From NCBI GenBank assembly GCA_903834925.1, contig CAILLA010000159.1:1-64000 (forward strand): DNA of 64,000 nt, given 5' to 3'. The notes under the pieces are model-generated. The model had not been told where the DNA came from and made no database searches. It saw only the letters and a list, made by a program, of their open reading frames with translations. Positions within the stretch are counted from its first letter, which is position 1. Each line of letters starts with the position of its first letter. This document shows positions 33,426 to 37,909 of this stretch, in pieces. The translations under genes and the position numbers were made by a program. The DNA comes from an uncultured Schlesneria sp. (GTDB lineage Bacteria > Planctomycetota > Planctomycetia > Planctomycetales > Planctomycetaceae).

Positions 33426-33480
33426 CTCGTTCCCAAGCTCCAGCTTGGGAACGGCCTCTTCGAAGCTCCGCTTCGCAATC
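33426..33480. repeat. Dispersed double-palindrome repeat, copy 2
   Basis: GTTCCCAAGCT-CCA-GCTTGGGAAC followed by CGAAGCTCCGCTTCG. In one frame such units read VPKLQLGN, a peptide seen in spurious frames where this repeat occurs in many bacterial genomes. The following 30 bases also resemble those after copy 3, so the duplicated unit may be about 90 bases. Confidence 0.85.
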
Positions 33481-33632
33481 TTTCAACAGGCCAGAGAATT
33501 ACGCTTGTGTCACATTATTCGTTGGAAATAATCATCAAAGATGAACGGCCCCGAATCTCTGAATAACCCGCACGAATTAAATCGGCCCCCCGGACAATAT
33601 TCAGTTTGCACAACAAAGTCAAACTGAAATTA

Positions 33633-33688
33633 CTCGTTCCCAAGCTCCAGCTTGGGAACGCCCTCTTCGAAGCTCCAGCTTCGCAATC
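33633..33688. repeat. Dispersed double-palindrome repeat, copy 3
   Basis: Same first hairpin as copy 2. The second hairpin is CGAAGCTCCAGCTTCG with one extra base in the loop. It is 207 bases after copy 2. Confidence 0.85.
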
Positions 33689-33907
33689 TGTCAATAAACC
33701 CGAACCATTAGCTTTCGCGACCGTCTGTCCAAATTCTTCTCTTCATATTCCTGTCATCATCGGCGATCGATCAGAAATCCGTCGTCTCACCGAAAAGCAA
33801 ATAATGTTGGCAAAGTTGACCGACTTCCGTTTTTTGTAGGGTTTTGTTCGTTCCCAACAATCGCCGGTGTTTTGAACACGAACGACTATCACATTCGATC
33901 TCTCTTC

Positions 33908-33940: not shown

Positions 33941-34080
33941 TTCTGTCTTCATCTTCCGTTCTGCTGGAATTAAATCGCCTAGAAATTTGGTGTCAAAGTT
34001 CGATTAAATTCGATCGACTTCGACGAATCCTCGTAATTCATAGGGTTTTCGCGATTGTTTTCTCGTTTTTTCGGGGTGTT

Positions 34081-34130
34081 CGAGTTCGATCGAGTTCGAC
34101 GCAGTTCGACGCAGTTCGACCGACTTCGAA
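34081..34130. repeat. 10-bp tandem repeat, five units
   Basis: Five consecutive decamers of the form (C/G)(G/C)AGTTCGA(C/T): CGAGTTCGAT, CGAGTTCGAC, GCAGTTCGAC twice, CGACTTCGAA. A looser series with 10-11 base spacing lies at 33998-34026. The spacing equals one helical turn, so TTCGA motifs face the same side of the DNA. Confidence 0.8.
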
Positions 34131-34671: not shown

Positions 34672-37665
34672 ATGATTTTCATCAGTTATCGCATTGCAGA
34701 CTCGAACGAAGCCGTCGCCAGGTTGGACAACGATCTCAAAAACGTGTTCGGTAAAAAGATCGTCTTCCGCGACAAGACTCGACTCCAAGGGGGAGACTTC
34801 TGGTCGACCGAAATCGAAAATCAGTTGGCGTCCTGTCAGGTGATGCTGGTCGTGATCGGGAGCTTTTGGGAGACAGTCAAGTTCGAAGGGGGCAAGCTCA
34901 AGGGGTATCCCCGGCTCCATGACCCCGAAGACTGGGTTCGACGTGAAATCACGTTTGGGTTGAACAAAGTCAAGTTGCCAGAACCTCGACAACTGAAAGT
35001 CATCATCCCAGTCCTGCTGAATGAGACCTCCATGCCCACAGCGGATTGGCTCGAAAATTTTGGACTGCAAGACCTGGCTGCAATTCAATCTCACCGATTA
35101 TGGACTGATTATTACACACGCGACTTCGAAGAATTGGTCGCCTTGATTCGCGAAAACTGTGATGATCTTCCTGAACCGCCAGCAAGCGACGGCGAAACGC
35201 CACCACCCTTGGTTTTGCCGGACAGCATCAGCCTCTACCTGCGTCGCCTCTCGAATGAGACTGCGTATATCCGATTGCTCGGCATGGGGCGTAATCTCCA
35301 GATCGATCTGCCGATTTCCGAGGCCTATGTCCCGTTGCAAACGACGCTTCGATTGTCGTTGGAACAAAACGCGACTGAGCGGTTTAAACCTGTTGCCGAG
35401 GAACAGGAACGGCGAATTGACCTGGGGCAGGTCTTTCAACAAGCAGCCCTGCGCGATGAACGGGGCGTGGTGCTGCTGGGCGAACCGGGTTCGGGGAAAA
35501 CAACCGGTGCCCGGCAGATCGCCTGGCGACTTGCAAATGGCGGTCAGACTGCCGCCGAGGAACTCGGTTTACCGGCGTCCATTACGCCCGTTCTGCTTCG
35601 CTTCCGCAATCTGACGAATGAGATGCTGAAAGAGAAGAATGGTCTACAACTGCTGCTGGACTCGGAGACGCACTGCGACAATGTAAGGGAGACACTTCAA
35701 AACCCCGGTCAAATACTGTGGGAAGAAACGCCCGGCGGATTGCTTTGGATTCTCGACGGTTTGGATGAAGTGGTCGATCCCGCAGCGCGAATCAAGGTGG
35801 CCGAATGGGTTAGCAAAGCCATCAACGAACGTTTGGACGACTGGTTTCTTGTCACCTGTCGATTCCAGGGCTATTTTCGAGACGGCGTTCCCTTGGGGCC
35901 GCGATTTATCGAGTTTCATGTCCGACCACTCGACGAAGCTCAGGTCGAACGGTTCATTCACGACTGGTTTCATGCCGCCTATGGTAAAATGCATGGCGCT
36001 GGTCATACTGCCGTGGAACTCGCTGAGGTCGACTGTGGCCAATTGCTGAAAATCCTGGTGCTCCCCGAATACCATTTAGGTCGGATGCGTGAACTGGCAA
36101 CGAATCCGCTACTGCTGACAATTCTGTGCATTGTGTTTCATCAAGAACGGCGACTACCGACAGGTCGAGCGGAACTTTACGCACATTGCGTACGCGTCTT
36201 GCTGGAACATTGGCGACGAGGTTTGTACGCGACGTACGACGCGAAAGCGGCTCAATCGGTGCTGGCTCGAATCGCCTGGTGGATGCACCAGCAGCAGGAT
36301 CGTGCTTCGGCTCCGCTGGCAGACTTGACGGACGAAGCAGCACGTGGCCTGGCTGACGTCGCCGAGAGTTCCGGCCTGGGCCGCGATGGCGAAGCCTTCG
36401 TCAAACGGATGCGGGAAGAGGCCGGTATCCTGGCGATGTCGGGCGACGGCACGGGTCGATGCGGATTTCTGCACCTGAGTTTTCAGGAATATCTCGCCTC
36501 GGAATACGCAGCGAGCGAAAATCAGTCGGGGTTTCTGGCCCAACACGCCAGCGAAAGCTGGTGGCGTGAAGTGGCCCTGTTGTCGCTTCGTGGCTCACGA
36601 TCCTATTGCGAATCATTCTTTCGTGCGCTTCTGGCTGCGGACGTTGCCGAAAACAACGCTGACCTGTTCGACCGCTGTCTGACGGAAGCACTGCATCCGG
36701 TCGCTTCGCCGTTTCTTGAGGCCCTGCATTGTGCAGACGGAAAACCGGTTGGGGCGATTCTTCGATTGCTCCGCAACCTTGTCAAAAACTTGACAACGGG
36801 AGAACGACAAGAGCTGGAACAAATTTGCCGAGACCTCGTCGTATCTTCCGACTCGCCGTCGGCGAGTTTCGCTCGAGAAATTCTCGGCGAGCTGGGGGTG
36901 TCGCTGCCAAAAACCGGCCCACAAACGTACCTTCACAAACGAACCGGAATCACATTCATCGAGATCCCCGCTGGCGAGTTTCAGATGGGTGAAAATCCGT
37001 CACATCTGGTTCGTCTCACGAAGCCGTTCTGGTTGGCGAAGTATCCGGTGACGAACTCGCAATACGAATTGTTTCTGAAGTCGACTTCGGCGGGAGCGAA
37101 GAAAACCCAACCGGAGTATAGGGACGATCGTCGCTTCAATCAGCCCGAGCAACCCGTTGTAGGGGTGAGCTGGGACGATGCGCAGGCGTATTGCCAATGG
37201 ACGGGATGTCGACTGCCGACGGAGGCAGAATGGGAATATGCGTGCCGAGCGGGCAGCGAACATGCCTTTTGCTTCGGCGACGACGAGTCGCTTTTAGGTG
37301 ACTACGCATGGTTTTATGCGAACAGCAACGGTCAAACGCAACCGGTGGGGACGAAGAAACCGAACGCCTTGGGCCTGCACGACATGCACGGAAACGTTTG
37401 GGAATGGTGTCAGGATTGGTATGGCAAATATCCAACCGAACTTGCCGTTGATCCGTTAGGACCGCCTTATGGCTCGTCCAGGGTGTGCCGGGGCGGTGGC
37501 TGGCGCCTCGAAGAGTCCAACTGCCGGTCGGGGGCCCGCGACAGGAGCAATAAAGACTACCGGCTCAACGACCTGGGCTTTCGCGTCGCCCTCAGTCCGT
37601 CCAACCAGCCGCCGGAGGCAAAGGAAAAAGCAGGTAGCGGAGCCGGGAGCGGAGGCCCGGAGTAG
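34672..37665 (+). CDS. TIR-NACHT-FGE/SUMF1 fusion protein (NLR-like, candidate defence protein)
   Basis: 997 residues from ATG 34672, which begins the TIR signature MIFISYRIADSNEA; a TTG at 34579 would add 31 residues. TIR domain about 1-155 with FRDKTRLQGGDFWSTEIE and DPEDWVRREI; Glu92 is the likely NADase residue by analogy. NACHT-type STAND ATPase: P-loop GEPGSGKT (270-277), Walker B LLWILDGLDEV (357-367), TCRFQGY and HLSFQEYLASEY, then helices to about 755. FGE-sulfatase/SUMF1 domain 760-973: FIEIPAGEFQMG, WLAKYPVTNSQYE, CRLPTEAEWEYACRAG, GLHDMHGNVWEWCQDWYG, GFRVA. The first redox Cys of true FGE is Leu here, so this is probably a binding module. Overall it resembles bacterial NLR-like anti-phage proteins. 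The trigger and effect are inferred. No partner gene adjacent. Confidence 0.88.
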   Translation: MIFISYRIADSNEAVARLDNDLKNVFGKKIVFRDKTRLQGGDFWSTEIENQLASCQVMLVVIGSFWETVKFEGGKLKGYPRLHDPEDWVRREITFGLNKVKLPEPRQLKVIIPVLLNETSMPTADWLENFGLQDLAAIQSHRLWTDYYTRDFEELVALIRENCDDLPEPPASDGETPPPLVLPDSISLYLRRLSNETAYIRLLGMGRNLQIDLPISEAYVPLQTTLRLSLEQNATERFKPVAEEQERRIDLGQVFQQAALRDERGVVLLGEPGSGKTTGARQIAWRLANGGQTAAEELGLPASITPVLLRFRNLTNEMLKEKNGLQLLLDSETHCDNVRETLQNPGQILWEETPGGLLWILDGLDEVVDPAARIKVAEWVSKAINERLDDWFLVTCRFQGYFRDGVPLGPRFIEFHVRPLDEAQVERFIHDWFHAAYGKMHGAGHTAVELAEVDCGQLLKILVLPEYHLGRMRELATNPLLLTILCIVFHQERRLPTGRAELYAHCVRVLLEHWRRGLYATYDAKAAQSVLARIAWWMHQQQDRASAPLADLTDEAARGLADVAESSGLGRDGEAFVKRMREEAGILAMSGDGTGRCGFLHLSFQEYLASEYAASENQSGFLAQHASESWWREVALLSLRGSRSYCESFFRALLAADVAENNADLFDRCLTEALHPVASPFLEALHCADGKPVGAILRLLRNLVKNLTTGERQELEQICRDLVVSSDSPSASFAREILGELGVSLPKTGPQTYLHKRTGITFIEIPAGEFQMGENPSHLVRLTKPFWLAKYPVTNSQYELFLKSTSAGAKKTQPEYRDDRRFNQPEQPVVGVSWDDAQAYCQWTGCRLPTEAEWEYACRAGSEHAFCFGDDESLLGDYAWFYANSNGQTQPVGTKKPNALGLHDMHGNVWEWCQDWYGKYPTELAVDPLGPPYGSSRVCRGGGWRLEESNCRSGARDRSNKDYRLNDLGFRVALSPSNQPPEAKEKAGSGAGSGGPE

Positions 37666-37909
37666 GCATAGCGGTAGCTTGCCTACGCAGGTGCCGGAGC
37701 GGACGGCGGAGCGGGGAATGTGATCGACTGACGTAGGATAGGCTTTAGCCTGTCCCCCGGACCGAGTTCCCTTCCGAGGGAACGAGGCGAAAGATTTCAT
37801 CAGTCGGCTAGAAATTACCCGAAGCAAGTTCCACATCTCGATTGCATGACGGGCGGATTTGGAAATTATTGGGATTTGCGCAACGGTCGGACGATCAGCT
37901 ATCGACGAA

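What the first reader, a model, noticed from the sequence alone, without database searches (positions are those of the whole stretch)
34672..37665. TIR-NACHT-FGE fusion: an NLR-like protein with a formylglycine-enzyme-fold sensor
Seen: TIR domain with a likely catalytic Glu92, a NACHT with P-loop at 270-277 and Walker B at 357-367, and a full-length FGE/SUMF1 domain at 760-973 in one 997-residue chain, flanked by repeats. Known: TIR domains of bacterial NLR-like proteins degrade NAD on infection, and NACHT proteins act as sensors. Inferred: the FGE fold, lacking the first redox Cys, is probably the ligand-binding end rather than an enzyme.
Basis: partly seen in the sequence, partly recalled or inferred. 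Interest (0 to 1): 0.72.

Follow-up and report, generated by a model that had tools for sequence, protein, structure and literature searches.

The report
Immune-type receptor with once-hypermutated sensor tip
This bacterial gene encodes a receptor built like animal and plant immune sensors, a likely self-destruct enzyme at one end and a binding domain at the other, and the binding tip bears the marks of a natural targeted-mutation machine that relatives still carry but that was not found for this copy.

Summary
In detail: one 997-residue protein with TIR (2-155), NACHT (266-435) and FGE (762-973) domains. Glu92 aligns with the TIR NADase SARM1. The first redox cysteine of human FGE is Leu946 here.

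The last FGE segment (nt 37480-37584) is a variable region of the kind written by diversity-generating retroelements (DGRs). Some homologous NACHT-FGE genes lie beside a reverse transcriptase and a template repeat and differ from it almost only at template adenines: 17/28 A against 0/77 other sites in one SIR2-NACHT-FGE gene. The window's segment keeps the signature (10 of 10 codons at template AAC/AAT positions end in C, p=5e-6) but has drifted (best of 24 templates 17/28 A, 16/77 other). Neither template found in its own genome fits well. The FGE model matches a DGR variable protein (TvpA, Z 30.4, tied with PvdO 30.2).

Best reading: an NLR-like TIR receptor whose sensor tip was DGR-diversified and is now probably orphaned. 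DGR-diversified STAND sensors are already in print (PMC10907252), so this is a new member of a known kind.

The parts
34672..37665 (+). TIR-NACHT-FGE gene, 997 aa
   Evidence: Open frame; Pfam domains; homologues with the same order
34675..35136 (+). TIR domain, residues 2-155; Glu92 in the WVRRE motif aligned to the SARM1 NADase motif
35467..35976 (+). NACHT STAND NTPase, residues 266-435, P-loop 270-277, Walker B stretch 357-367
35977..36954 (+). region between NACHT and FGE, residues 436-761; no Pfam family at E 0.1 or better; helical only in a low-confidence model
36955..37590 (+). FGE-type (C-type-lectin fold) domain, residues 762-973
   Evidence: AlphaFold model pLDDT 92.4 of residues 747-985; VIA-align matches TvpA 2y3c Z 30.4, PvdO 30.2, FGE 27.9
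37480..37584 (+). DGR-type variable region, residues 937-971; 10 of 10 codons at template AAC/AAT positions end in C
37100..37793 (.). tract of high identity with the paralogue on contig C123 (0.80-0.93 per 60 nt), interrupted by the variable region (0.67-0.68) and running about 130 nt past the stop codon
37736..37755 (+). hairpin-forming sequence after the gene; in the genome exact copies only here and after the C123 copy, two further sites at 3 mismatches
37766..37783 (+). second hairpin, 7-bp stem with TCCG loop, also after the C123 copy

Best explanation
An NLR-like bacterial immune-type receptor. The C-terminal FGE-fold domain is a binding domain (not an enzyme) whose tip, residues 937-971, descends from a DGR variable region: a DGR copied an AAC-rich template repeat into it with random changes at adenines. 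Ligand binding there is proposed to release NACHT, which oligomerises with ATP and brings TIR domains together; the TIR then destroys NAD+ and stops the infected cell. In this genome the matching template and reverse transcriptase were not found, so this sensor is probably no longer rewritten and works with a fixed specificity. Shown by computation: domains, loss of the FGE redox Cys, DGR signature, direct DGR targeting of some homologues, no matching template found in the assembly searched. Inferred: ligand sensing, NACHT activation, NAD+ loss, role against phage, present inactivity of diversification.
For: Domains. TIR profile hits SARM1 NADase, E 6.5e-15; 7 of 8 aligned TIRs keep the Glu. 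Homologues are DGR targets with the template in the same locus (105-nt rows): G142 SIR2-NACHT-FGE 17/28 A and 0/77 other sites; L084 DUF4062-NACHT-FGE 14/27 and 0/78; G059 21/25 and 3/80 (in a 679-aa relative of residues 378-978 that Pfam calls FGE only; the SIR2-NACHT-FGE gene in the same locus is cut by the contig end); also TIR-FGE L114 13/24 and 1/81, and L102 13/25 and 0/80 (L102 not scanned by Pfam). Among the 10 loci with a NACHT-FGE gene scanned, 3 held such a pair; those 3 also hold a DGR-type reverse transcriptase. Window VR: differs from its C123 paralogue at 17/25 template-A sites against 19/80 others, p=8.5e-5, with the G059 template (uncorrected, template chosen as the best fit of six); 10 of 10 codons at template AAC/AAT positions end in C against 29.5% of the gene, p=5e-6; best of 24 templates 17/28 A and 16/77 other, p=1.7e-4 (uncorrected). 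The 10 template-N positions are all among the 25 most variable columns of residues 762-971 in a 44-sequence FGE alignment. The FGE model's top VIA-align match is TvpA. NACHT-FGE relatives and DGR-type reverse transcriptases co-occur: 8 of 13 against 18 of 157 other family genomes, p=8e-5; by genus 5 of 7, p=0.014.
Against: No matching template found in the own genome, so the DGR origin rests on homologues and on signature; 7 of the 10 NACHT-FGE loci scanned showed no template/variable pair in view. Non-A differences from every known template are many (at least 16/77), so ordinary divergence has also acted. Across the whole protein, 150 of 942 windows of 35 codons differ from C123 at codon positions 1 and 2 at least as much as the VR, and the ratio of position-1/2 to position-3 changes in the VR (1.30) is close to that of the 35 codons just before it (1.25); only in amount, inside the FGE domain, does the VR stand out. 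TvpA is tied with PvdO and close to true FGEs in fold, and Foldseek ranks human FGE first and TvpA 16th. PMC7159879 (passages) lists such FGE domains as effectors rather than sensors. No defence genes among the ten neighbours tested. No assay of any kind.
Confidence: 0.7

Rival explanations
1. The variable region is still served: the DGR cassette with the matching template lies in an assembly gap, or one of the two known templates reaches it, so this is a live hypermutated sensor.
For: 307 contigs. Four homologue contigs end at or inside the FGE domain (L057, L165, L168, L173), as expected if this repeat breaks assemblies. Apparent trans-targeting exists in this genome: the C245 template fits a gene on contig C278 at 17/28 A and 2/77 other sites. 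The NNC codon signature is perfect at the ten positions. By the loose rule of PMC7517822 (50% nucleotide identity) the window VR, 55/105 and 58/105 identical to the own C229 and C245 templates, would count as a remote target.
Against: Completeness 99.99%; only two DGR-type reverse transcriptases found; no better template by DNA search or by one hand-made 42-nt degenerate pattern, which could miss a drifted template; against the own templates 36/82 and 30/76 non-A sites differ, unlike live targets.
Confidence: 0.2
2. An ordinary FGE-fold STAND protein that never met a DGR: loop positions vary because they bind ligands, and resemblance to templates is shared ancestry of the FGE fold.
For: The same loop positions vary widely in the 44 FGE domains aligned, not all of them shown to be DGR targets; non-A differences from every template are many.
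Against: The NNC pattern in 10 of 10 codons and the excess at template-A sites between paralogues are not explained by loop variation alone; relatives at 54% (G142) and 56% (G059) identity are direct DGR targets.
Confidence: 0.12
3. The FGE domain is still an enzyme (oxidoreductase or sulfatase-maturation type) attached to a signalling protein.
For: Fold close to human FGE and PvdO; Cys951 is kept.
Against: The position of human Cys336 is Leu946 and is an AAC/AAT codon in 22 of 24 templates, i.e. a position meant to vary.
Confidence: 0.03
4. A TIR-NACHT regulatory or developmental switch rather than anti-phage defence.
For: No defence genes among ten neighbours tested; a kinase-FGE variable protein occurs in the same genome.
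Against: N-terminal domains differ (TIR, SIR2, calcineurin-like phosphoesterase, DUF4062) on one NACHT-FGE core, typical of conflict systems (knowledge); patchy presence of relatives, 3 of 15 genus genomes.
Confidence: 0.2

Closest known systems
DGR-diversified STAND-CLec putative antigen sensors (clade 5D, Thiohalocapsa PB-PSB1 DGR 3 and 6; PMC10907252, section 12 and passages read)
   Same: Central NACHT or nSTAND1 plus C-terminal FGE/CLec domain with a variable region; some have TIR or peptidase N termini; proposed as antigen sensors, untested
   Different: Here no matching DGR was found in the genome and the variable region has drifted; the targets discussed there sit in DGR loci
Remote variable proteins and variable-protein homologues of cyanobacteria (PMC7517822, passages read)
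   Same: CLec genes dispersed in the genome away from the DGR cassette, variable region near the 3' end, other domains grafted N-terminally
   Different: Those were tied to their own genome's DGR by a 50% identity threshold; this VR passes that loose threshold (55 and 58 of 105) but fits templates of other genomes better
Bacterial NACHT (bNACHT) and Avs anti-phage proteins (mentioned in PMC10907252, section 12; otherwise recalled)
   Same: Effector-STAND-sensor order
   Different: No NCBIfam equivalog passes its cut-off (EruA 28.5 of 1000 bits, HyoA 12.9 of 1200); PADLOC gives only weak partial matches; C terminus is FGE-fold
Treponema denticola TvpA (PDB 2y3c)
   Same: FGE-subtype CLec fold with the variable region at the C terminus; top VIA-align row, Z 30.4
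   Different: Single-domain protein (PMC6328139, passages read), no TIR or NACHT
Formylglycine-generating enzyme SUMF1
   Same: Fold and Cys951
   Different: First redox Cys replaced by Leu946; C-terminal segment has the DGR signature

Membership tests
DGR variable protein (active target) | Template repeat in the genome from which the variable region differs almost only at template adenines | tested here: not met
   Two DGRs found (C229, C245); window VR against their templates 14/23 A and 36/82 other, 17/29 A and 30/76 other; no other template found. An assembly gap is not excluded
DGR variable protein (by descent) | NNC codons at template-N positions, excess of change at template-A sites, homologues that are targets | tested here: met
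DGR variable protein (by descent) | FGE/CLec fold with the variable region at its C terminus | tested here: met
STAND/NACHT NLR-like protein | NACHT with P-loop and Walker B, N-terminal effector-type domain, further C-terminal domain | tested here: met
   the sensor role itself is inferred
TIR NADase | TIR domain with catalytic Glu | tested here: met
   (by alignment)
TIR NADase | NAD+ cleavage | not testable with these tools
   needs an assay
Formylglycine-generating enzyme | Cys336/Cys341 redox pair | tested here: not met
   Leu946/Cys951
Known anti-phage NACHT system | Match to a curated NCBIfam equivalog over its cut-off, or a full-length PADLOC match | tested here: not met
Defence-island gene | Neighbouring defence genes | tested here: not met
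   0 of 10 neighbouring proteins tested match PADLOC at 1e-3; neighbours of homologues not tested

The most novel reading that the evidence does not exclude
This genome keeps a repertoire of retired DGR sensors: TIR-NACHT and TIR-nSTAND1 receptors whose tips were once hypermutated and are now fixed, and whose FGE cassettes are exchanged between loci by recombination. The window and C123 copies share a ~690-nt high-identity tract with the tip as a divergent hole. That would be a bacterial parallel to a germline store of past somatic-like diversity.
Probability: 0.3. Interest if true: 0.75.

Novelty: new member of a known kind. Interest (0 to 1): 0.56.

Why it matters
It links the NLR layout of animal and plant immunity with a targeted-mutation system that builds binding tips in bacteria, here in what looks like a planctomycete family (contigs of two of its family's genomes, G133:C381 and G016:C27, correspond in length and match to the named planctomycete records L081 and L083). 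On one NACHT-FGE core the N-terminal domain is TIR, SIR2 (both known as NAD-consuming types), a phosphoesterase or DUF4062, while the tip is rewritten separately. Because the tip of this copy seems fixed, it is a practical subject: its ligand could be sought without a mixture of variants.

Tried and rejected
Own-genome template for the window VR: DNA search, a hand-made 42-nt degenerate pattern with 3 mismatches that recovers only the gene itself and the G059 template as query (best hits C123 and the gene itself, then one on C146 at E 0.18 and weaker ones). Whole-protein AlphaFold without alignment failed (pLDDT 37.6) and was not used except to say the middle is helical at low confidence. A single-sequence PDB search with the TIR found nothing; the 8-sequence profile did. 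Downstream hairpins as a general DGR element: in 28 variable regions that I chose (not all with a template), perfect stems of 7 bp or more lie within 260 nt after 10 and before 1; too uneven to claim a conserved element. VR as the most divergent part of the whole protein: not so. Tree of the NACHT core: only 4 of 16 inner branches well supported, so the 6 label changes are not placed in order. Synteny: the pyrophosphatase-ZIP pair next to the gene is kept in 5 of 6 genus loci fetched (of 13 relatives with a ZIP match); in the 2.4-5.0 kb in view beyond ZIP none of the six window genes tested from the other side was found, so the gene lies at a break of synteny, without a clean empty site.

Literature: searches (title lists and abstract starts seen); passages of PMC10907252, PMC7159879, PMC8195603, PMC8144416, PMC7517822, PMC6328139; section 12 of PMC10907252. 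I make no claim that orphaned TIR-NACHT-FGE genes are absent from print.

Full report
OBSERVATION. The frame at 34672-37665 + encodes 997 residues. Pfam places TIR_2 at 2-155, NACHT at 266-435 and FGE-sulfatase at 762-973, each above its cut-off. A profile of eight TIR domains hits SARM1 TIR structures best, with the Glu92 motif on SARM1's KDWVHKEI; seven of the eight keep the Glu. Against human FGE the first redox cysteine is Leu946 and the second is Cys951.

DISTRIBUTION. Relatives of the protein, whatever their N terminus and some only partial, are patchy: 3 of 15 genus genomes at E 1e-60 and 13 of 170 family genomes at 1e-70, own genome included. The NACHT-FGE core is joined to different N termini: TIR, SIR2, calcineurin-like phosphoesterase, DUF4062, or none recognised. 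On a tree of 19 cores the labels need 6 changes (4 is the least possible), but the tree is poorly resolved. Besides the window gene and its C123 copy, the own genome holds at least two further TIR-STAND-FGE genes: C81 (TIR-NACHT-FGE) and C192 (TIR-nSTAND1-FGE); its other FGE genes were not all scanned for TIR. The C123 copy has one in-frame stop in its Walker B stretch.

THE DGR LINK. Searching the own genome for FGE domains gave 32 matches, two of them C-terminal fragments beside reverse transcriptases. These are template repeats. On C229 the template and two variable regions differ at 14/23 and 10/23 A sites and 0/82 others. On C245 the template fits a kinase-FGE gene nearby (14/28 A, 8/77 other; below the thresholds) and a gene on contig C278 (17/28 A, 2/77 other) (kinase-FGE domains). 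So the genome has two DGRs, and one appears to act on another contig.

Some homologues of the window gene are themselves targets. In the scan of 14 loci, 5 held a template/variable pair at the set thresholds; of the 10 loci with a NACHT-FGE gene, 3 did (L161, L165, L084) and 7 did not. Those 3 also hold a DGR-type reverse transcriptase. In 105-nt rows: SIR2-NACHT-FGE of G142 17/28 A, 0/77 other; DUF4062-NACHT-FGE of L084 14/27, 0/78; a 679-aa relative in G059, matching window residues 378-978 but called FGE only by Pfam, 21/25, 3/80; TIR-FGE of L114 13/24, 1/81. L102 adds 13/25, 0/80; it was not scanned by Pfam and no reverse transcriptase was seen in that locus. In the family, these relatives and DGR-type reverse transcriptases co-occur: 8 of 13 against 18 of 157 genomes, Fisher p=8e-5; by genus 5 of 7, p=0.014 (from; relatedness is not corrected in the first figure).

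THE WINDOW'S OWN VARIABLE REGION. It spans 37480-37584 (residues 937-971). At the 10 positions where at least 70% of 24 templates have AAC or AAT, all 10 codons end in C, against 29.5% in the gene (p=5e-6). That is the trace of AAC rewritten to NNC. Other FGE tips in the same listing range from 2 to 10 of 10. Against the 24 templates the best is L190 (G100): 17/28 A, 16/77 other, p=1.7e-4, and 9 of 24 give p below 0.01 (uncorrected). Compared with C123 and judged by the G059 template, changes fall on 17/25 A sites and 19/80 others, p=8.5e-5 (uncorrected). The own templates fit badly: C229 14/23 A and 36/82 other, C245 17/29 A and 30/76 other. Three further searches of the own genome found no template. 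I conclude descent from a DGR target, with ordinary drift since. Against this: the amount of change in the VR is not exceptional for the whole protein (150 of 942 windows reach it), and its codon-position ratio resembles that of the codons just before it.

THE SHARED TRACT. Between the window and C123 copies, identity per 60 nt is about 0.4-0.8 from the TIR to the region before the FGE, rises to 0.80-0.92 at 37101-37460, drops to 0.67-0.68 over the variable region, returns to 0.80-0.93 up to about 37793, past the stop codon, and then falls to background. Third-position mismatch is 0.29 in the FGE before the variable region and 0.57-0.63 in the parts before the FGE; it is 0.65 over the 17 codons aligned after the variable region, where the protein alignment is gappy. 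This fits exchange of the 3' cassette between loci with the tip changed separately. Two hairpins lie in the shared 3' part; the first occurs exactly only at these two places in the genome, with two more sites at 3 mismatches.

STRUCTURE. An AlphaFold model of residues 747-985 with 44 sequences has pLDDT 92.4. By VIA-align the top match is the DGR variable protein TvpA (Z 30.4, rmsd 2.2, 219 aligned), tied with PvdO (30.2), above true FGEs (27.9 and lower); Foldseek ranks human FGE first and TvpA 16th by E-value. In solved DGR variable proteins the variable residues are solvent-exposed and form the ligand site (PMC6328139, passages). The 10 template-N positions are all among the 25 most variable columns of residues 762-971. 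Exposure of these residues in the model was not computed.

MECHANISM. Proposed: ligand at the FGE tip, NACHT assembly, TIR NADase, growth arrest or death. Only the anatomy and the tip's origin are shown; the rest is inferred from known NLR-like and TIR proteins. Neighbouring genes are ordinary and none of the ten tested is a PADLOC match, so there is no island support in this window.

KNOWN OR NEW. PMC7159879 (passages) describes FGE domains with DGRs in conflict systems, listing them as effectors that bind invader molecules; PMC10907252 (section 12 and passages) describes DGR targets with STAND and FGE/CLec domains, some with TIR, as proposed antigen sensors. Variable proteins away from the cassette are described in cyanobacteria (PMC7517822, passages). 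This gene is therefore a new member of a known kind; the probably orphaned state and the exchanged cassette are its less usual sides.

Noticed in passing
L036 (own genome C229:3000-15000): TIR gene, MoxR-like ATPase, FGE variable protein, reverse transcriptase, template and a second FGE target in a row: looks like a DGR-bearing ternary conflict system (MoxR label from reading the sequence, not from a family search).
   Followed up: partly
L035 (own genome C245) and L006 (C278): The C245 template fits a variable region on another contig (17/28 A, 2/77 other sites), i.e. apparent trans-diversification.
   Followed up: partly
L041 (own genome C123:31000-37500): Second TIR-NACHT-FGE copy broken by one in-frame stop in the Walker B stretch while its FGE and 3' flank stay close to the window copy.
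   Followed up: partly
L057, L165, L168, L173: Contigs of homologues in three genomes end at or inside the FGE domain, as if this repeat breaks assemblies (L169 ends just before it).
   Followed up: no
L192, L193, L200, L212, L227: Further loci of relatives carry two or more FGE variable regions; L227 has a clear template, the others were not examined.
   Followed up: no
window 34073-34129 and 33430-33690: Ten-nt AGTTCGA-type tandem units and a CCCAAGCTCCAGCTTGGG-type inverted repeat in the intergenic region before the gene.
   Followed up: no
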